This document shows positions 3,701 to 13,085 of a DNA stretch of 40,019 bases, in pieces (within the stretch, counting starts at the first letter, position 1; each line of letters begins with the position of its first letter). A program made the position numbers and the translations under genes. Source of the stretch: Patellaria atrata CBS 101060 (Eukaryota; Ascomycota; Dothideomycetes; Patellariales; Patellariaceae); NCBI GenBank assembly GCA_010093705.1, contig MU006089.1, forward strand, positions 898,658-938,676. Reading direction: 5' to 3'. The notes under the pieces were generated by a model. It was not told where the DNA came from and made no database searches. It saw nothing but the letters and a program-made list of their open reading frames with translations.

Positions 3701-4727
3701 GAAGCATATACCAGACGGAGTCCAGAATATAGTCTCGGTTTCCACGAAATTAGCTACGTTACCATCGTCATCGATGCCACGAGCATTGAATCTTGTCCCT
3801 GCCCTCCTACAAGACAAGCGCGAAACAAGAGTAATAGTAGACGGTAAGCCAGAAGCCCTGGTTCTAGCGGGGGATGATGAAGGGGGGACCGTTAATGTCT
3901 GTACGAAACCTCTTATAGCAGAAGTTAGTATTTGTGACGAGTCAAGAGCGTCCTTTTCGCGCTGAGATAAACGAGAACGGAAGTCGACTAGTGGCTGGAT
4001 CATGTATGAATTCCACAAGAAGCCCGCTTCCAGACTGTCAATCGCTACAGTAGCAGCATCGTAGGACCTATCCTGTAGCCTCCGGGTGACATCAAAGTCC
4101 GCGCTGTAGTAGAAAGTTCCACTGCTCAATAGCTTTTTCAAGGTCAAACATGGATGCTCCAGCACATGCTCGCGCCTACCAGAACCATATCCCATCTCAT
4201 AACCCTCATCATCAACAGTATCCGTAGGGTAAGGATTGATTTCGTCGTTTAGCAGGTGATCATAGTCAGATCTGTTTAAACAGTCTATACACAACATTAG
4301 CTCCTGAACTCCTAAAAGAGCCAAAAAAAACAACAAAAAGCCCAGGCGAATACCCACGAAACTCAACCGACAGAATCCTCTGCACAGTCTCGCCCGGCCG
4401 CACAGTAGCAACCTTCGAACTGGCGCTAACAACGCAAAGAAACACATCATTATTAACCGTTATAAGCCCCAGCGTGCCATGCACACTCATAGAACTCAGA
4501 GACCTATACTCGCTTAGGTCGGTACTCGTTAAAGCTGAGAACTCCACCATACAACGGGGAGCGCTCGCTCCAGTGCTGGAGAACGAGGTTTGGGAAGCAT
4601 TACGAGAGCTGAAAGTATCTAGGTCGGTCGAGGATGGGCTATGGCGGAATATGAGGACGTGAGAGGAGGTTGCGAGACCTATTGCGCGATGTGGGTGGTC
4701 CTTAATGAGGACACGGATGCCAGACAT
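793..4727 (-). CDS. Synaptojanin-like SAC domain + inositol-polyphosphate 5-phosphatase
   Basis: This is a phosphoinositide phosphatase of the yeast Inp51/52/53 type, acting on PI4P and PI(4,5)P2 at the plasma membrane and in endocytosis (family knowledge). Proposed exons: 4727-4358, 4284-2416, 2369-2065, 2015-1906, 1859-1531 and 1478-793, 1222 aa in total. The SAC domain covers about residues 60-560 and has an intact CX5R(T) loop, CLDCLDRTN, near residue 490. Together with the 5-phosphatase this suggests the two-activity Inp52/53 class rather than Inp51. The 5-phosphatase domain starts near residue 630 (WVGTFNLNG) and has MSGMAGNKGAVA, WLGDFNYRI, PAWCDRVL and SDHRPV. The last ~230 residues are Pro/Ser-rich with PPVPRKP-type motifs, as in tails that bind SH3 proteins. 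The first splice uses an unusual GTGGGT donor. I assign the family firmly but not the exact yeast orthologue. Confidence 0.9.
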
Positions 4728-5390
4728 CTCGTGGACGGGGAACGGAAGATGCAGTCGTCAATTGTGCTGGCATATTTGGTCTGGTAAACAGTAGGATGCT
4801 TTGAGAATGCGGTTTAAGGTAATAGGATCATTATAGGTGCTCATGACTGAGGGAGCAACGGGAGAGAACTGAACTCATACGGTACGTAACACACAAATAA
4901 TTTTGTTTTAGCTCCCCAGAATAGTATCTAGACTGGACGGCCTATCATTACTATAATAGGGAAGCCGCAGAATGTTCTACCTCTGGATATACAATGTAAT
5001 CCTATCCATTACATCGCTAGTTTCAAAACTAATTTTATCGTCTGTTACCGACGCTTAGATTCAACCACTATCCCCTGCCCACCAATTCCCAATTTCTTCA
5101 TGCTGTGAAATTCAACAGACCTCTGGTTCAAAAATCTGGACAGTGTAGAGTCCTGTACGGAGCCAAATTTGACAACTTACCGCTTTACGTACAGAAACAG
5201 TATAGCGACCGAGTGATGCCGACAGTGACTAAGGAGGAGCTATTAAATCTTATGGAGAGTATAGCTAGAACTTAATGATGTACACTGATACGTAGATGCA
5301 ATAAACACGTCAACTCTATAGTACTTTCCGAGGAGGAGCTGTAAGAAGTTCTCGTCTTCATATTAGGTCATCCCCTCCTGTGACAGTTTG
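4728..5390. other. Intergenic: phosphatase promoter and MSH4 3' region
   Basis: The stretch is AT-rich with no convincing ORF. It lies between the start of the SAC/5-phosphatase gene and the stop of MSH4, both on the minus strand, so it should hold the promoter of the former and the 3' UTR of the latter. Confidence 0.4.
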
Positions 5391-8300
5391 CTATTCCGAC
5401 ACCATGCTCTGGTCGCCCTCCGTTGCCTGATCAGCTTCAGTATTCGTTCCGTCGCCATCCCCTTCTGTGTTACTCCTCAGTTCTGCTTCCACTTCCGCAG
5501 CCTTAGCATTAATAGCTTCCATTCTAGCGATAAATTCCTTCTGCAGCTCCTTCAACCAGCTCTTCAGAACGTCTCCTTCCAAGGTACCATTCTGCGCCTG
5601 AACCAGATGTTCTTTCAGGCTGAGGATCAGTTTTCTACGGCGTTCGTGTATGACCGACATGGAATTCTTCTTCTGTCTCTGCATACGACGTTGGAGCGTC
5701 TCTGCCACTGTTGTTGCATGTTCGACAACCGCGGGTGGAAGAGGAACAACGTTCGCGAGCGCGAGACCGTAATGTTCCTCTTTGACCGCACCCTCAGCGA
5801 TCTTATATAGCATATTGATCCGGTCGCAATCAGTCATTTCAACAGCAAGATGCAGGTTGACCACGCCATTTCTCTCCGACATGATGGTTGCTAGATCCCG
5901 AAAATGGGTTGCAAACCATACCAGAGCCTAAAATGATATTAGCACTGAAGCTTGAAAGTTAGGACCGCACACGAACCCGACTTCCTACAAGGGCTTCTGC
6001 AATAGCCAGTGCAATAGCTAGTCCATCTCTTGTACTGGTACCTCGCCCAAGTTCATCAACAATTGCCCTAGAAGATATTAGGATCCAGGTTTTATCGATC
6101 TGTGAGGAGTACTCACATGCTTCGTTTATCAATATTCCGGAGGATGAATGCAGCTTCCCTCATCTCCGCGGCGAAAGTTGACACATTCGATTCAACACTA
6201 TCATCTATGGAAACTCGTGCAAATAATTGATATATAATTGGGAATGCCGCGTACTGGGCAGGAACGCTGGGTGCTATTAGGAAAGTTGGCCTCTAAGTGC
6301 TTCTAGGTGTTGACAGCTTACAAACTACCTATCTGGGCCATTACAGACATCAACGCGATGGACCGAATATATGTACTTTTACCGCTCATATTACATCCGG
6401 TAATGATCTGAAATCTGTTTTGCTGAGTCGCGTATACATCGTTAGGTATGTATTTGCTCGATTGCACCTTTTCGCGGATAGGATGACGTCCAGACTTGAT
6501 TGCTAACGTATCTGCAAGCTGGGGTCGAACTATAATCACTCAGTATTTGACGCCACTTCATATATCTCCTTACGAACCATAGTCCTGACTCGTCACCAAT
6601 TGGGCGAATGAAGCTAACTGTTCTATGTTAGGTGTGTTGCAAACGTAGATACTTTCGAAATTCATACCATGTCCAGCATCGCAATGCTTTCACAGATTCT
6701 AAATAGAGCTGATATATGTTCTCTTATGGATGCAATGAGATCAAATACAGCTTGATTACTCATAAGAATTACTTCTTGGTGTGCATCCGTAATCTAGAGA
6801 GTCAGTAAGTGAAGATCGTAGCGTATGCGACAATATCACCTTCTGATTCTTCTTCACAAGGTCTAAGGTCTGACATTCTACGAAATTCTTTTTCCGAAAG
6901 ACATTGACAAATACTGAAGGTAATACACGCTCTTCTAACTCAGATGCTTGAACTCGAATGTAGAACTGGCGATTGCTATCAAATTTCAGGTCCAGTGGTA
7001 TCTCATGCGTGTCTAGCAAGAACGTCAGTATTATGATTAATGTCAGCCTAGAATGTAATGACTTACGGCTCAATTCAGTCACATATTGATATGTGTCTTC
7101 CGTAGCCTCCTTATAGGCTTGTCTTGCTACATCTAAAAGACCATTGACCCCCGACTTTTAGGAATGTCACTAATAGTATACTGCTGCCAGCTATGAGCCA
7201 CAAACCTTAACAGCGTAAGTGCGCTGGTTTCTCAAATCCAGGGGCTGATTAGCGAAAGTAGTGTCTTCGTTGATCACAGTATCAATTAATTCTCGCACCG
7301 GATCCACGTTTTGCGGAGCACACAACTGCAGAAGATTAGTTGTATTAGAGGATAAAGGGGACAAAACGAACCGCGCGAATATTAACCAATATTGCGCTCC
7401 TTACGCTAGTCATCGCTTCGTATATCGGACTAACAGACAGGACAAATTGCTTCAACATAATGACATTATTGATAGCTTGCTCTGCCTGTTGAATGAACTG
7501 GGAAGATGTAGGAGTGGGGATGATAATGAGCTGTTCTGAGATAAGTTTGAGCTTATCATGAAATGATAGGTCTTAACATACAGCTGTTAGGACCTTGTCA
7601 ACATCAAAGAGTGCTCTCAAACCTGCTAAATTTTAGAGAAGTCTGCCAATATAAGTAATAGAACCAACCTTGTCTTGTAGCAAAGAAGAGTTCTTCCTTT
7701 GTGGTGAGTTCCTCTAGCGCATCGTATCTATTGTTCAGAGTGTCGGCATCAGTAAGCGGTTGCAAGATATTACTTCTTAGCAGACGCGATCCCATTGGTG
7801 TGAGTGTTGCATTCAGAAGGCCAAAAAGACAATCTTTCGATTTTGGTTTTTGTAAGTTCTGTATAAGTTCCAAGGAATGAATAGTCGAAACATCAATCAT
7901 CATTGAACCCTCGGAGGGCTCATACTTAATCCTGAGCGAATGAAAAGGAAACGTCTTAGACAAACCCAGTTCAATGTACTTGAGAGCCTAAGGGAATATG
8001 AGAAAGGATACTAAAACCCTTCATCAGGAATGGAAACATACAGCAGCTATGCAGCAGACAGCAAAGTAATTCCCACCAATCGAAATCTTGATGGCCTCAA
8101 CGTCTTCCGCAAAAGCTAGCTGCTGGATGTATTCCAGTCCTGTAGTCTCAGCCCAATAGCGACGATCCAGCAATTTCATTCTGCTATTAAGAGCTTCTAA
8201 GTTCTCCTCAATGATGGAGAAAAGTTTAGACTTGGGATTAGCAGCAGTCGATACTATTAGAATCTTAGACGGCCCATAGACCATGAGCTTGTGGATGGTC

Positions 8301-8614: not shown

Positions 8615-8670
8615 GATTTTTGTTTAGCACTTTGGTTAACAATTAGCAAAGGAATGATTTAATATGATAA

Positions 8671-9028
8671 TCTAAGATCTCCACAAAAAATCTTGAAGAT
8701 CCATGTGAGATATGACTTGGATGAGAAGTTCACTTTTGTTGATGAGATGGGAAAGAACAAGTCGCGAACGTGGAGTGGAGGTCGCGTTGGCAGGACGCAT
8801 GAGCCATATCTTAACTCTTGGCATAAAATGGTCCAAGGCGAAGCGCCGGGGTACCGTACGAAACTCAAGGTTCTTTTTAGTTCTTTGTTAAATACTTAGA
8901 ATGCAATCAATTCATACTGTTATCTGAGGTCTCGATGAAAAATCTTCAAGATTCATGTGCGATATGACTCGGATGAAAGTTCAGTTTCTTTTCACGAGAT
9001 GAGACACGAACGAAAGTCAGCCCAGGTC
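8671..9028. repeat. ~250-bp degenerate tandem repeat, units A and left part of B
   Basis: Unit A spans 8671-8922 and unit B begins at 8923. Both open with a TCTRAGRTCTC-like block, an ATCTT(G/C)AAGAT block and a GATATGACT block. Unit A then has GAGGTCGCGTTGGCAGGACGC and CTCTTGGCATAAAATGG, followed by the AAACTCAAGG..TTTTTAG joint to the next unit. Unit B breaks off at 9028 and resumes at 12513 beyond the hAT element. The array begins only about 60 bp upstream of the MSH4 start. Confidence 0.75.
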
Positions 9029-9340
9029 AATAATACTCAGTTGTGGCCAACAATACGTATCGATAAGGTATTGGTATTCTCGGTATTTCATCGGTATTGT
9101 ATCGAATATTGTAATACCTTAAAAATACTCTTGGCATTCAAGGCTTTTTGATACTTTTTAGAATTTATCTAAAATATTCATACATTTTGAAGAATTTTAT
9201 TGAGATGAAGATGCCTTCGTACGAAGCCATTGCATAGCTATGAGTAATATGTACAGTTATTCTAATATGGAAGGCACGAGGGCGTGCCTGCCTTCCCACC
9301 TGCCTACCTACCCACCTGCTAGTTTACATAAATATCTCTT

Positions 9341-9388
9341 CTTTCTAAGCTTTCTCTTCTTCTCTTCTTCTCTTCTTTTCTCCTCCTT
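9341..9388 (+). promoter_or_regulatory. CT-rich tract upstream of the DUF3716-like ORF
   Basis: A run of TTCTTTC/TCTTCTTC-type pyrimidines lies 75-120 bases before the ATG at 9463. CT-rich tracts at this distance are common in core promoters of filamentous fungi. It supports the idea that the plus-strand ORF is a separate transcription unit. Function is inferred from position and composition only. Confidence 0.35.
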
Positions 9389-9462
9389 GACCTCTCATTT
9401 AGCAACTCGAAATATAAGTGCTCAGCTCAAATCTATCGTACGAAGGCTAATCAGACTACAGC

Positions 9463-9999
9463 ATGGCAGATATGCAAGTAGTTCTCTACAACCCAGCGAT
9501 CGCGCTTGCCGCTCAGGCAAACCGCAACCCAGTGCTACTCGTAGCACAGCAGCAACTGGCTCCGTGATGCCATAGCCCACAGAGTAGAGCACTTCTGGCT
9601 GTCGGCGGGGGTGCTGATGTTGAGTTCGTACGGGGCTCCATCACGCCTCAGCAGATTGGATCTCATAGGCAGTCATATGTCAATAGGATCCTCATCCAAT
9701 CTCGTGGAGGTGATTTTGATCCTTGTACGGCTTGTGGTACGAAAGGTTTTCGTCCCTTCCTTAGTTGTCGCCGCGCTGGGGGACACTTTGGCGGAGCATG
9801 TGCCAACTGTAAATGGCGTGACCATGCAGCGCGCTGTCCCGTACGAGCTGGTAGGCCAAATGAGCCTACTTATGGAGACAGGCTGCTTGGACCTGGTCCA
9901 GGGGATGACGGAGCTGACGGCAGTGCCCCTGGGAATGCTATCACGCTGGGAGATGATGACCAAGGGGCTACTCCCCAAAATGCTAGAATCATTGTCTGA
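9463..9999 (+). pseudogene. DUF3716-like zinc-binding ORF inside the hAT element, one in-frame TGA
   Basis: From ATG 9463 one frame runs 179 codons to TGA 9997-9999, interrupted by a single in-frame TGA at 9565-9567 (after AQQQLAP). A CGA-to-TGA change, as repeat-induced point mutation would make, is the simplest explanation; I cannot exclude an unrecognised intron. The middle holds a Cys pattern: DPCTACGTKGFRPF, then LSC, then GGACANCKWRDHAARCPV. This CxxC...C...CANC...RC layout is that of the fungal DUF3716 domain, whose function is not known. The tail is acidic and Gly/Asp-rich. The ORF is tail-to-tail with the transposase at 10160-11500 and lies within the element's terminal repeats. It could be a captured host gene or a standard component of this hAT lineage. 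Confidence 0.6.
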
Positions 10000-10159
10000 G
10001 CAAAGCTTCGTACGAAACTTTCTTTGGCGTTCTAGCGTTCTAGCTTTTAGGTGTTCTACTTTACATAGCTACACAGCTATTAATAGCACTTAGACATGAT
10101 CTGTACCTTTACGTGGTGTCTAAGATTAGTAGCCATTAGGCGAAACTAAATAGATCGTA

Positions 10160-11500
10160 CGAACCTTTTAGTAAAATGTTTTGTTTTGCCCAATGCTTAA
10201 GACATTTAGTATGTTCTAGCTCTCTTGAATTTAAGCGTGATCTTTCCCATGATACCGTACGACGAGCTGCTGAAAATACTCGTTCTGGTTCATCACTTAT
10301 AGCTGGAATTGAGAGGCTCTCAACTGAAAGTATAGATGGCCGTGGAAACCGAGCTCTTTAAGTATCAGTTAACCACCATTTAATAGGTGAAGCGTCCCCA
10401 ATATCGTACGGACCTTGGTTAATATAATCTTCAAACTCATCACCACTTAAGGGAGTCTTATTAAACCACTAAATTTGATCAAGAACACGTTCAAAATCAG
10501 TTATATTCTCAGATAGAGTCCTCTTTTCTTCGTACGACGCTGATAATGGTACTAAATAGGTTTTATTCCATTTTTCCAGTATAATTTAGTAAGCTTAATT
10601 ATCTACTCAGCTTTCCCTCTTTCTTTCCTCTAACCTTCCTTAATAATCTTCTGTACGATATTAAGGAGTAAAGATTGTCGCAAGAATATAATAAGGTGAG
10701 GAAAGAAGTATAGAATAATACTTCTTAAAAAGGTGTAAAGCTTTACAAAGTTAAGGTTCAAAATCTTTCTTATAGGTATTGTCACGGTTTGGTACTTACA
10801 CACACACGTCCCGTGATCACGTGGTCTTATCTCATCAGATAAGATCCCTTGGCGTAATGATCATATCAACGATCCTTCGTAGTTTGTAGATAATCAGTTC
10901 TAATATATTCGTTAATACTCAATATTGTTAGTTTATCTACTACGTTGACGTGCCCTTACAGGTATGTTCATACTTTCTTAAAAGAATATGAAAGCCAAGT
11001 ATCGTACGAAGTATTATATTAAATGATAGAGAATGGGCTTAATTTACGTTACCTTATAAAAGGGGCGAAGAATTAAATGGATCGTACGAAGCTTTTTCCA
11101 ATCTTTATATGAAAGATAATCCTCTTTAAGATCACTATATTATCTCTTAATATATAAATCGATTTCTTCTTCTTTACTTAGTGCAACATCTATCATAATA
11201 TACTAGCTATTCCATCTTGTACGATTATCAAGTGGAATCATTCTCTCTACTCTTATAGTAAAGTCTTTTAAGTGATGTGTAGAGCTTCGAATATAAACCA
11301 CAATATTATAAAGCTTTCCAAGTGACCCTACCGTACAAAAGGCTGACTATCTCTATCTTCTTAAGTCGGCTTGTCTTATCTTATAATCCTCTATTGATAG
11401 TTTATATGTAAGACTACTTAGCCCTTAAGATTTAATTTATTCTTCAGCGTCGTACGACTCAATTAAGTTCCAGGGAACGCAAAATCATGGAGAAGCAGCT
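10160..11500 (-). pseudogene. hAT transposase, decayed (interrupted by a solo LTR)
   Basis: On the minus strand, segments of a fungal hAT transposase can be read in order. They are SLGKLYNIVVYIRSS (about 11320-11270), MIPLDNRTRWNS (about 11240-11205), LKEDYLSYKDWKKLRTI (about 11125-11075), GDEFEDYINQGPYDIGDASP (about 10450-10390) and the C-terminal dimerisation block ISDEPERVFSAARRTVSWER (about 10310-10245). Several in-frame stops separate them (for example after LDQI and after WWLTDT), and the N-terminal part, expected towards 11500-12300, was not found and may partly fall in the assembly gap. The base composition is TA-rich, consistent with repeat-induced point mutation. The copy cannot encode a whole transposase. 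Confidence 0.8.
10780..10960. mobile_element. Solo LTR of an LTR retrotransposon (fossil)
   Basis: A 181-bp segment starts TGTCACGG and ends CCCTTACA, and is flanked on both sides by the 5-bp direct repeat GGTAT (10775-10779 and 10961-10965). The TG...CA ends and the 5-bp target duplication are those of an LTR. No internal retrotransposon sequence adjoins it, so it is a solo LTR left by recombination. It sits inside the hAT transposase and is therefore younger than the hAT insertion. The family (Ty1/copia or Ty3/gypsy) cannot be decided from the LTR alone. Confidence 0.8.
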
Positions 11501-11894
11501 AAAGTTAAGAATGACATTAACAAAGCTCTTTTGTATAGAGAAGGGGAAAGAAGTACTCTTCCAGTACCTACATAATACTTAGATCTCAACAGCTAAATGG
11601 CTTCTACATACAAGAGAAATAAATGAAGAAGAACAAGAAACGTATTAAAAATGATAGCATACAGGGGAAAAACTGGATTGAAATATAATGCAGGGAATTG
11701 AGGAGCAAAGGATTGTTACAACGGGAGTCTATACTTATCGAGACAGAACTAGATAAGTCTAGAACGCGCCTGGCTTCTCACTTAACGTGGTCAACCACAA
11801 AGGTAGGTTTGGCAAAGTGATAGGATACGTATAACAAAGGCACTTCAAGTTGTCGACACAACTTGCTGACTCCTTGACTTCGGGTAATGCTCAC

Positions 11895-11994
11895 NNNNNN
11901 NNNNNNNNNNNNNNNNNNNNNNNNNNNNNNNNNNNNNNNNNNNNNNNNNNNNNNNNNNNNNNNNNNNNNNNNNNNNNNNNNNNNNNNNNNNNNN
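11895..11994. other. Assembly gap (100 N)
   Basis: Exactly 100 N in a row, the usual placeholder for a gap of unknown size. It lies in the right part of the hAT element, where the transposase N-terminus or a further insertion would be expected, so the true element length is unknown. Confidence 0.99.
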
Positions 11995-12512
11995 AAGAAT
12001 AACTACGAAGAATCTAAATACATGAGGGAAAGACCGTCCTTAAATATTCCTATCCTCCATAGTCAATTTGGTGGTGCTCCCACTGCTCCTGTGCTCCCAC
12101 CTAGGGATCACTGGGAGCATGGGATCACGTCACGTGACCTCCGTGCTCGTTGTTCCGTTCCGACGTCCTCGTGCTACCATTCCGCTGGTGATGCACTCTC
12201 TGTCGTTCTGTGGCCGTAACAAGGATATAGTGGAGTTGGTTCACTTTTTCTAAAAGCTTGACTTGGACTGTAAAGTTTGGACAACTGGAGAGTTTCACTC
12301 CTCAGACACTCTCACTAGGCATATTATTGCCCTAGGATAGGGATTTATGTGAATAGAAGAGTAGCGCCATAGCCCTAGAGGCTGCATGCGCAGTATTGTA
12401 GATAATGCAATGCAATGGATTTAAAAAAAAAATCGATATCGATCTAATACAATACTAATCAGTATTCAATACTATTTAATACCGGAATATTATTGGCTAT
12501 ACTGGCCAGGTC

Positions 12513-13085
12513 GCGTGTCATGACGCACGGGTCATATTCTCAATCTTGGTACAAGGACTATTGAACACTTTTTCTTTGAAGAAACTCAAGAATTTTTTTA
12601 GCCCTTTGCCTACCGGTTAGCAAAGGCGTGTTGCAGCGTAATTATCTAAGATCTCAGCAAAAAGTTTCAAAGATCCATGTGCAATATGAAATTTGGAAGG
12701 GAAGTTCAGTTTCTCGTCTGGACGTGGTAAGAGGGGTAGATCAAGTCGCGTTCACGCACGAGCCATAACCCAAACCTTGGCATATAAATGTCTACCCAAA
12801 AGCATCAACACATACTGTAAACGCTTCTTAAAAACTCAAGGAATTTTTAGTCATTTGCTTAACGGTTAGTCTAGGAGTAATTTAACACAGATATCTGAGA
12901 TCTCCGCAAAAAATGTCGACGATCCATATGCGATATAACTTTCGAAGAAAAATTCAGTTTCCCTTGATCAGAACGGAAACCCGAGTGAAGTCGTCACCTC
13001 AGTCGTCAGTAAAGTCATCACGCCTTTGGGATGCACGTACCACCCACGCGAGTCATCCGAAATCTTGGCACAAAAAAAGTTCCAA
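12513..13085. repeat. ~250-bp degenerate tandem repeat, right part of unit B and units C and D
   Basis: Unit B resumes at 12513 with a GCGTGTCATGACGC block, aligning with the GAGGTCGCGTTGGC region of unit A. Unit C starts at 12645 and unit D at 12895 (250 bp spacing; A to B is 252 bp). Each unit joins the next through AAACTCAAGRA..TTTTTAG and GGTTAG blocks. Unit D ends within about 115 bp of the RSA4 start, so the array lies across the shared upstream region of MSH4 and RSA4. Confidence 0.75.

What the first reader, a model, noticed from the sequence alone, without database searches (positions are those of the whole stretch)
9029..12504. hAT transposon that seems to carry a second, non-transposase gene (DUF3716-like)
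Within one pair of hAT terminal repeats there are two genes facing tail to tail: the transposase (minus strand, 10160-11500) and an ORF with a DUF3716-like Cys pattern (plus strand, 9463-9999) preceded by its own CT-rich tract. Fungal hATs are usually described with the transposase only. DUF3716 has no known function; if it travels with hATs, it may be a transposition accessory or regulatory protein, which would also explain its high copy number in some fungi.
Basis: partly seen in the sequence, partly recalled or inferred. Interest (0 to 1): 0.72.

Follow-up and report, generated by a model that had tools for sequence, protein, structure and literature searches.

The report
Two-gene hAT transposon tiled with palindromes
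A fungal jumping gene carries, besides the enzyme that moves it, a second conserved gene of unknown function, and its length is dotted at even intervals with one short DNA palindrome, which suggests that the second protein may recognise and protect or regulate its own transposon.

Summary
Window 9038-12504 is a decayed hAT copy; the plus-strand ORF 9463-9999 is a DUF3716 gene (PF12511), broken here by one in-frame TGA. All 13 DUF3716 matches found in the genome lie in the 13 sizeable copies of this hAT. Four further hAT-domain matches belong to other hATs without DUF3716. Nine of 11 copies with both ends visible have perfect 8-bp target duplications. One copy (L009, 3450 bp) is complete: 177-aa DUF3716 protein and 700-aa transposase, both open, tail to tail. 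Two subfamilies share the gene, with dN/dS 0.38-0.55 between them, so it is an old, selected part of the element.

The main surprise was not in the finding. CGTACG occurs 21 times in L009 (0.3 expected), evenly spaced through non-coding DNA and both ORFs in all three frames. It is absent from the outermost 150-180 bp, where a different repeat (GTATT/AATAC) sits.

I infer, without showing it, that the DUF3716 protein binds this motif and acts like the VANC anti-silencing proteins of Arabidopsis VANDALs. A host factor or the transposase are live rivals. Second genes in fungal hATs are known (TET/JBP in rusts); my ten paper searches turned up no account of this one.

The parts
9021..9028 (.). left target-site duplication CCCAGGTC (7 of 8 match the right one)
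   Evidence: sequence
9029..9037 (.). 9-bp spacer AATAATACT between target duplication and TIR; not seen in the other copies with visible target duplications
9038..9051 (+). left TIR CAGTTGTGGCCAAC (one extra base against CAGTGTGGCCAAC of most copies; L019 shares it)
9038..12504 (.). decayed copy of a two-gene hAT element, with nested insertions
9463..9999 (+). DUF3716 gene, 178 codons, in-frame TGA at 9565-9567; domain about 9688-9843
   Evidence: PF12511 E 1.1e-11; intact homologue in L009
10140..11468 (-). C-terminal part of the hAT transposase (approximate bounds), many stops; dimer domain at 10190-10432
   Evidence: PF05699; matches to the L009 transposase
10780..10960 (.). 181-bp TG..CA insertion in the transposase, 5-bp flanking repeat GGTAT (solo-LTR-like)
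   Evidence: sequence
11469..12431 (+). SINE-like element A with A tail, at the place of the missing transposase N-terminus; interrupted by element B
11714..12221 (.). element B inside A: TG..CA, 5-bp flanking repeat AGGAT, reads as a solo LTR; contains a 100-N run (11895-11994)
   Evidence: sequence; copies
12432..12504 (.). right end of the hAT with AATAC/GTATT repeats and TIR ..GGCTATACTG
   Evidence: (matches right ends of other copies)
12505..12512 (.). right target-site duplication GCCAGGTC
9218..9223 (.). CGTACG motif site (left non-coding)
9437..9442 (.). CGTACG motif site, 20 nt upstream of the DUF3716 ATG
9627..9632 (.). CGTACG motif site inside the DUF3716 ORF
9840..9845 (.). CGTACG motif site inside the DUF3716 ORF
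10009..10014 (.). CGTACG motif site just after the DUF3716 stop
10156..11456 (.). seven CGTACG motif sites in the transposase remnant, starting at 10156, 10256, 10405, 10531, 11003, 11083, 11451

Best explanation
This is a two-gene hAT transposon. SHOWN: the DUF3716 gene is a regular component, present in all 13 sizeable copies and both subfamilies, with purifying selection between subfamilies. SHOWN: the element is tiled with the palindrome YCGTACGR (mostly TCGTACGA), about one site per 140-155 bp, through non-coding DNA and both genes and in all three reading frames; the two outer ends instead carry GTATT/AATAC repeats. INFERRED: the transposase binds the end repeats, as other hAT transposases bind subterminal repeats. 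INFERRED: the DUF3716 protein, whose conserved Cys/His residues suggest zinc binding, binds the palindrome, probably as a dimer, along the whole element. INFERRED: by coating its own DNA it keeps the element open for transcription, excision or both and opposes host silencing, as VANC proteins do for VANDAL elements in Arabidopsis; in L009 motifs 20 and 24 nt upstream of the two start codons could also serve autoregulation. The motif holds no CpA/TpG, the context changed most often in the window copy, so such sites would survive RIP-like mutation. Confidence: second gene integral to the element 0.95; motif functional for the element 0.85; DUF3716 as its binder 0.5; anti-silencing role 0.35. The number below is for the whole chain.
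For: 13 of 13 PF12511 matches in the genome are inside this hAT; 13 of 17 PF05699 matches are its copies and the other 4 are other hATs without a DUF3716 match. Perfect 8-bp target duplications in 9 of 11 copies with both ends visible. L009 is complete with both ORFs open. dN/dS of DUF3716 between subfamilies 0.38-0.44 for L009 or L014 against window, L010, L019, and 0.51-0.55 for decayed L020; transposase 0.32-0.34 for L009 or L020 against L010 and L019, 0.53 for L009 against the window. CGTACG 21 in 3450 bp against 0.3 expected, largest of 500 shuffles 2. Coding sites 17 against 1.0 expected when synonymous codons are resampled, 2000 times. 23 sites once two sites present in the other subfamily are added: spacing 141 +/- 45 bp, minimum 84; none of 100,000 random placements as even. 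4-fold positions inside motifs kept 69 of 70 against 787 of 927 outside. CpG shared between the subfamily majority states 39 of 43 in motifs against 56 of 108 elsewhere. GTATT/AATAC: 14 of 19 lie in the terminal 270 bp. Parts of three other hAT loci in the genome show no such palindrome. Only 409 TCGTACGA in 28.3 Mb, 94 of them in these 13 copies.
Against: No binding evidence exists; the link between DUF3716 and the motif is co-occurrence in a single family. The 8 youngest copies all carry the same 1-base deletion in the DUF3716 frame, so a DUF3716 product of their own was not needed for their spread, unless it is a consensus error or the protein came from L009. Motif conservation is not significant against hexamers free of CpA/TpG (16 of 20 against 66%, p = 0.13), nor in non-coding DNA alone (61 of 66 against 1610 of 1919, p = 0.08). 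The site upstream of the transposase ATG is lost in L010 and L019. The fold prediction was useless (mean pLDDT 31). VANC motifs are tandem and mainly non-coding (PMC5735166, passages); these are dispersed and mostly coding.
Confidence: 0.35

Rival explanations
1. The palindrome is bound by a host transcription or chromatin factor. The element has collected the sites to borrow host activation or boundary function; DUF3716 does something separate, such as helping transposition.
For: The same 8-mer lies in a 19-bp promoter element of Pseudocercospora fijiensis cyp51. Isolates with six copies showed 3.3-5.6-fold higher expression than one control isolate; the difference from a second control was smaller, and an isolate with three copies did not differ from it (PMC6637983, passages). 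A fungal factor that recognises it may therefore exist. This rival also fits the spread of young copies with a frameshifted DUF3716 gene.
Against: Even tiling through both coding regions is more than promoter control needs. TCGTACGA is not enriched genome-wide: 409 against 415 for the reversed control pattern.
Confidence: 0.3
2. The transposase itself binds the palindrome through its N-terminal zinc finger, and the dispersed sites titrate or regulate it.
For: hAT transposases bind short repeated motifs (PMC3143072, passages). The transposase has a weak C2H2-type match at residues 49-74 (zf-H2C2_5, E 0.23).
Against: CGTACG is absent from the first 181 and last 151 bp of L009, where hAT binding sites are expected. 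A different repeat, GTATT/AATAC, is concentrated there: 14 in 270 bp against 5 in 3180 bp.
Confidence: 0.15
3. DUF3716 is a DNA- or RNA-binding helper in excision or integration, or a regulator of transposase, with no link to silencing.
For: Regular association and purifying selection; tail-to-tail two-gene layout.
Against: Leaves the element-wide motif unexplained and needs a separate account of it.
Confidence: 0.15
4. DUF3716 is a captured passenger gene without function for the element.
For: Broken frames in the window, the eight young copies, L019 and L020.
Against: Present in both subfamilies, which differ by about 16% over the left 1.3 kb, with dN/dS 0.38-0.55 between them and about 1 within the window/L010/L019 subfamily. 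Intact in L009 and open in L010.
Confidence: 0.05

Closest known systems
VANDAL MULEs with VANC anti-silencing proteins (Arabidopsis; PMC5735166 passages, PMC10398659 abstract)
   Same: DNA transposon with a non-transposase gene, and a short motif at high density in its own copies and rare elsewhere
   Different: hAT, not Mutator; DUF3716, not VANC; a palindrome dispersed evenly through coding and non-coding DNA, not same-orientation motifs in non-coding tandem repeats; no binding or demethylation shown here
TET+ hAT7 elements of rust fungi (PMC12730594, abstract and passages)
   Same: fungal hAT with a second gene proposed to help escape silencing
   Different: 7-bp target duplications and a TET/JBP dioxygenase there; 8-bp target duplications and DUF3716 here; no dispersed motif mentioned in the passages seen
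Fungal hATs Restless, Drifter, Tfo1, Crypt1, VdHAT1 (PMC3441728 passages)
   Same: CAGNG- type inverted repeats; hAT dimerisation domain (stated there for VdHAT)
   Different: no DUF3716 gene mentioned in the passages seen
hAT subterminal transposase-binding repeats (Herves, Ac, Tol2, Tag1; PMC3143072 passages)
   Same: the GTATT/AATAC repeats at the ends fit this pattern
   Different: the CGTACG motif fills the interior and avoids the ends
PF12511 DUF3716
   Same: matches above the curated cut-off (46.3 bits against 22)
   Different: family of unknown function; no credible relative found in solved structures

Membership tests
hAT superfamily | 8-bp target-site duplication | tested here: met
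   9 of 11 copies with both ends visible perfect; L010 7 bp; window 7/8 with a 9-bp spacer
hAT superfamily | short TIR starting CAG | tested here: met
   CAGTGTGGCCAA / TTGGCCACACTG
hAT superfamily | C-terminal hAT dimerisation domain in the transposase | tested here: met
   PF05699 E 4.7e-15 in L009; E 8.7e-10 in the window copy
hAT superfamily | BED-type zinc finger at the transposase N-terminus | tested here: inconclusive
   only zf-H2C2_5 at E 0.23
hAT superfamily | RNase H-like DDE catalytic core | not tested
   no Pfam match to it; the transposase was not folded
DUF3716 (PF12511) | score over the curated cut-off | tested here: met
   44.9 bits and 46.3 bits against 22
VANDAL/VANC-type sequence-specific anti-silencing system | accessory gene besides the transposase in the same element | tested here: met
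VANDAL/VANC-type sequence-specific anti-silencing system | short motif at high density in own copies, rare elsewhere | tested here: met
   154 CGTACG in 13 copies (about 31 kb read) against 24 in 105 kb of flanks
VANDAL/VANC-type sequence-specific anti-silencing system | motifs in non-coding tandem repeats | tested here: not met
   17 of 21 L009 sites are coding; evenly dispersed
VANDAL/VANC-type sequence-specific anti-silencing system | accessory protein binds the motif and removes silencing marks | not testable with these tools
   needs protein and chromatin assays
TET+ hAT7 | 7-bp target duplication | tested here: not met
   8 bp in 9 of 11 copies
TET+ hAT7 | TET/JBP dioxygenase gene | tested here: not met
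   Pfam scan of the two L009 proteins shows DUF3716 and hAT transposase, no TET/JBP

The most novel reading that the evidence does not exclude
A fungal hAT encodes its own sequence-specific coat protein (DUF3716) and has evolved an even lattice of recognition palindromes through its genes, roughly one per nucleosome-sized length and made of dinucleotides that RIP spares. The protein could thus mark the whole element as self and shield it from silencing or from homology-based mutation. This would be a new, convergent form of sequence-specific anti-silencing and a first function for DUF3716.
Probability: 0.3. Interest if true: 0.85.

Novelty: new variant of a known kind. Interest (0 to 1): 0.62.

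Why it matters
It ties a gene family of unknown function to a transposon as a selected component and gives a concrete candidate target sequence, so the function of DUF3716 becomes directly testable with one binding assay. An evenly spaced palindrome running through coding sequence is unusual for a cut-and-paste transposon (my judgement). If DUF3716 binds it, fungi with RIP-like mutation would have their own independently evolved counterpart of VANC anti-silencing.

Tried and rejected
Single-sequence fold of the window's DUF3716 protein: mean pLDDT 31, so no fold search was made. Relatives outside the genome: none confirmed in viral contigs (L009 protein) or in bacterial and archaeal genomes (alignment A1). 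PDB by sequence: nothing credible. A cluster of three TCGTACGA at C1:1876057-1876388 falls in a repetitive stretch of a 793-aa ORF, not in a transposon that I could see. Independent insertion of DUF3716 rejected: target duplications flank the whole element. Passenger gene disfavoured by dN/dS. Amino-acid demand as the cause of the motif rejected: synonymous resampling gives 1.0 site against 17. A conservation test against CpA/TpG-free hexamers was not significant and is reported. Literature, ten searches of open PMC papers: 'DUF3716' 0 papers; 'PF12511' 1 paper, one passage, a Colletotrichum sublineola strain-specific gene; the 8-mer with 'transpos' 33 papers, 20 listed; seven searches on hATs with extra genes, end motifs and anti-silencing, where three of the lists were cut (10 of 14, 20 of 28, 15 of 18 shown). 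None of the titles and abstract starts shown describes a fungal hAT with DUF3716. Repbase could not be searched.
Full report
What is in the window. The window is G000:C1:898658-938676, part of a 28.3-Mb genome in 46 contigs. It is not named; I take it for a filamentous ascomycete from the kind of genes and the RIP-like mutation (inference). Window 9038-12504 is a hAT copy. The plus-strand frame 9463-9999 matches PF12511 DUF3716 at E 1.1e-11 but has one in-frame TGA. The minus strand holds the C-terminal part of a hAT transposase (PF05699 at 10190-10432); the part coding for the N-terminus is missing. Between 11469 and 12431 there is instead a SINE-like element with an A tail (other copies; the copy in L020 is 5'-truncated), itself split by a 508-bp TG..CA element with 5-bp flanking repeat AGGAT, which reads as a solo LTR. 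A 181-bp TG..CA insertion sits at 10780-10960. Of 123 changes private to the window copy, 75 are C to T, and 44 of those are CpA to TpA, a RIP-like bias.

The family. The genome holds 12 further large copies, fetched as L009-L020. Eight of them (L011-L018) are identical over the left 1318 bp, apart from one N in L018, and then read N. L009, L020 and these eight form one subfamily; the window, L010 and L019 form the other; the two are about 84% identical over the left 1.3 kb. L009 is complete: 3450 bp, TSD AGGTGCGG, TIR CAGTGTGGCCAACGAT, DUF3716 protein 177 aa (L009 4050-4583 plus), transposase 700 aa (4721-6823 minus), 137 bp between the two ORFs. Perfect 8-bp target duplications were seen in 9 of 11 copies with both ends visible; L010 has 7 bp and the window 7 of 8; the right ends of L015 and L016 were not visible.

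Does DUF3716 belong to the element? A whole-genome search with PF12511 gave 13 matches, each in one of these 13 copies. A search with PF05699 gave 17: the same 13 copies plus four loci of other hATs (L021-L024), where PF12511 has no match. A search with the left 176 bp found the 13 copies and one 58-bp remnant (C3:46717), cut off before the gene. A search with the right 180 bp found 11 of the 13 copies, a right end next to N (C1:682616, content unknown) and a right-hand fragment with transposase N-terminus (C3:1764967). No copy with two readable ends lacks the ORF. These searches score only the best candidates, so counts are lower bounds.

Selection. Between subfamilies dN/dS of DUF3716 is 0.38-0.44 when L009 or L014 is compared with the window, L010 or L019, and 0.51-0.55 when the decayed copy L020 is used. 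For the transposase it is 0.32-0.34 for L009 or L020 against L010 and L019, and 0.53 for L009 against the RIP-hit window copy. Within the window/L010/L019 subfamily both genes give 0.89-1.11, as expected of decaying copies; within the other subfamily the few changes give 0.26-0.59. I read this as both genes having been under constraint before the copies decayed. Against a strict need for the gene: all eight young copies share one 1-base deletion in the DUF3716 frame, ahead of the Cys/His domain. They may have used protein made by L009, or the deletion may be a consensus error of a collapsed repeat.

The dispersed palindrome. The window as a whole has 17 CGTACG, 12 of them in the element (4.2 expected in the whole window, largest of 100 shuffles 9). 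In L009's 3450 bp there are 21; 500 dinucleotide shuffles gave 0.3 on average and at most 2. Across the 13 copies there are 154 sites in about 31 kb read, against 24 in 105 kb of their flanks; the copies are not independent. Genome-wide TCGTACGA occurs 409 times in 28.3 Mb, no more than the reversed control pattern (415), and 94 of the 409 are in these copies. 17 of the 21 L009 sites are in the two ORFs and use all three reading frames. Resampling synonymous codons gives 1.0 site on average against 17. Two more positions (1686, 1851) are CGTACG in the other subfamily. With these 23 sites the spacing is 141 +/- 45 bp, minimum 84, maximum 288, and none of 100,000 random placements was as even; with the 21 sites alone the fraction was 1e-4 of 20,000. 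In L009 one site lies 20 nt upstream of the DUF3716 ATG and one 24 nt upstream of the transposase ATG; the second is lost in L010 and L019. Flanking bases make it YCGTACGR in most cases, most often TCGTACGA.

Is the motif conserved? In L010, L019 and the window, 45 of 55 readable L009 motif sites are kept, against 13 of 54 other hexamers with two CpG. 4-fold degenerate positions inside motifs are kept in 69 of 70 comparisons, against 787 of 927 outside (Fisher p 3e-4). The three copies are related, so both counts overstate independence. On subfamily majority states, CpG is shared in 39 of 43 cases in motifs against 56 of 108 elsewhere (p 4e-6). Whole motifs are identical in 16 of 20 determinable sites (3 of 23 set aside), against 40% of hexamers with CpG (p 3e-4) but 66% of hexamers without CpA/TpG (p 0.13, not significant). 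In non-coding DNA alone the difference is not significant (p 0.08). So frequency and spacing are the strong evidence; conservation supports it under the CpG and codon controls only. Parts of three other hAT loci of the genome (L022, L023, L024) show no enriched palindrome.

Two motif systems. The outer ends carry GTATT/AATAC: 14 in 270 bp against 5 in the 3180-bp interior. CGTACG is absent from the outer 181 and 151 bp. hAT transposases are known to bind subterminal repeats (PMC3143072, passages), so the ends look like transposase sites, and the interior motif looks like the target of something else.

How it most likely works. A palindrome suggests a dimeric binder. The DUF3716 protein has conserved Cys and His residues (C-x2-C, then C, then C-x2-C-x4-H; read) and is the only other gene I found in the element. 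I therefore infer that it binds the motif along the element and keeps it active against silencing, as VANC does for VANDALs (PMC5735166 passages; PMC10398659 abstract). Each of these steps is inference. Even spacing, coding location and palindromic symmetry differ from VANC motifs. A host factor is a serious rival, because the same 8-mer lies in a promoter element of Pseudocercospora fijiensis cyp51: isolates with six copies showed higher expression than controls, one with three copies did not (PMC6637983, passages).

Novelty. Second genes in fungal hATs are known: TET/JBP in hAT7 of rusts (PMC12730594, abstract and passages). No paper in the library holds the word DUF3716, and PF12511 appears in one. 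I rate this a new variant of a known kind: a two-gene hAT with a new accessory gene and an unusual motif lattice.

Noticed in passing
L009 4204-4572, window 9611-10093: A second reading frame (+1) overlapping DUF3716 is open for 146-152 codons in L009, L010 and the window; synonymous resampling of L009 gives an equal or longer one in 2.5% of cases. Possibly chance, possibly dual coding.
   Followed up: partly
window 8619-8967 and 12593-12938: Four diverged direct-repeat units of about 250-bp period flank the hAT, two on each side; related fragments (74-86%) occur at many places in the genome.
   Followed up: partly
L019 3535-3986: The SINE-like element A (452 bp between the two gene flanks) sits inside a DUF3716 ORF and ends in a long A run. 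The first 10 of these bases resemble the 10 bases after the A run (8 of 10), so an imperfect target duplication is likely.
   Followed up: partly
L020, left end of the hAT: A TG..CA insertion with TTAGA on both sides, read as a solo LTR, lies in the left end of this hAT copy.
   Followed up: no
L009 3804-3899: A 16-bp unit upstream of DUF3716 (GCCCACCTGTCTACTG) is repeated in tandem more often in L009 than in the other copies aligned.
   Followed up: no
G000:C22, C44, C11, C29, C25 (L021-L024, L032): Other hAT lineages without a DUF3716 match or CGTACG cluster; in one family (L021-L023) the copies are 94-99% identical where they align.
   Followed up: partly
PMC6637983: TCGTACGA is part of 16-20-bp promoter repeat elements in another fungus, so a host protein that recognises it may exist.
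   Followed up: no
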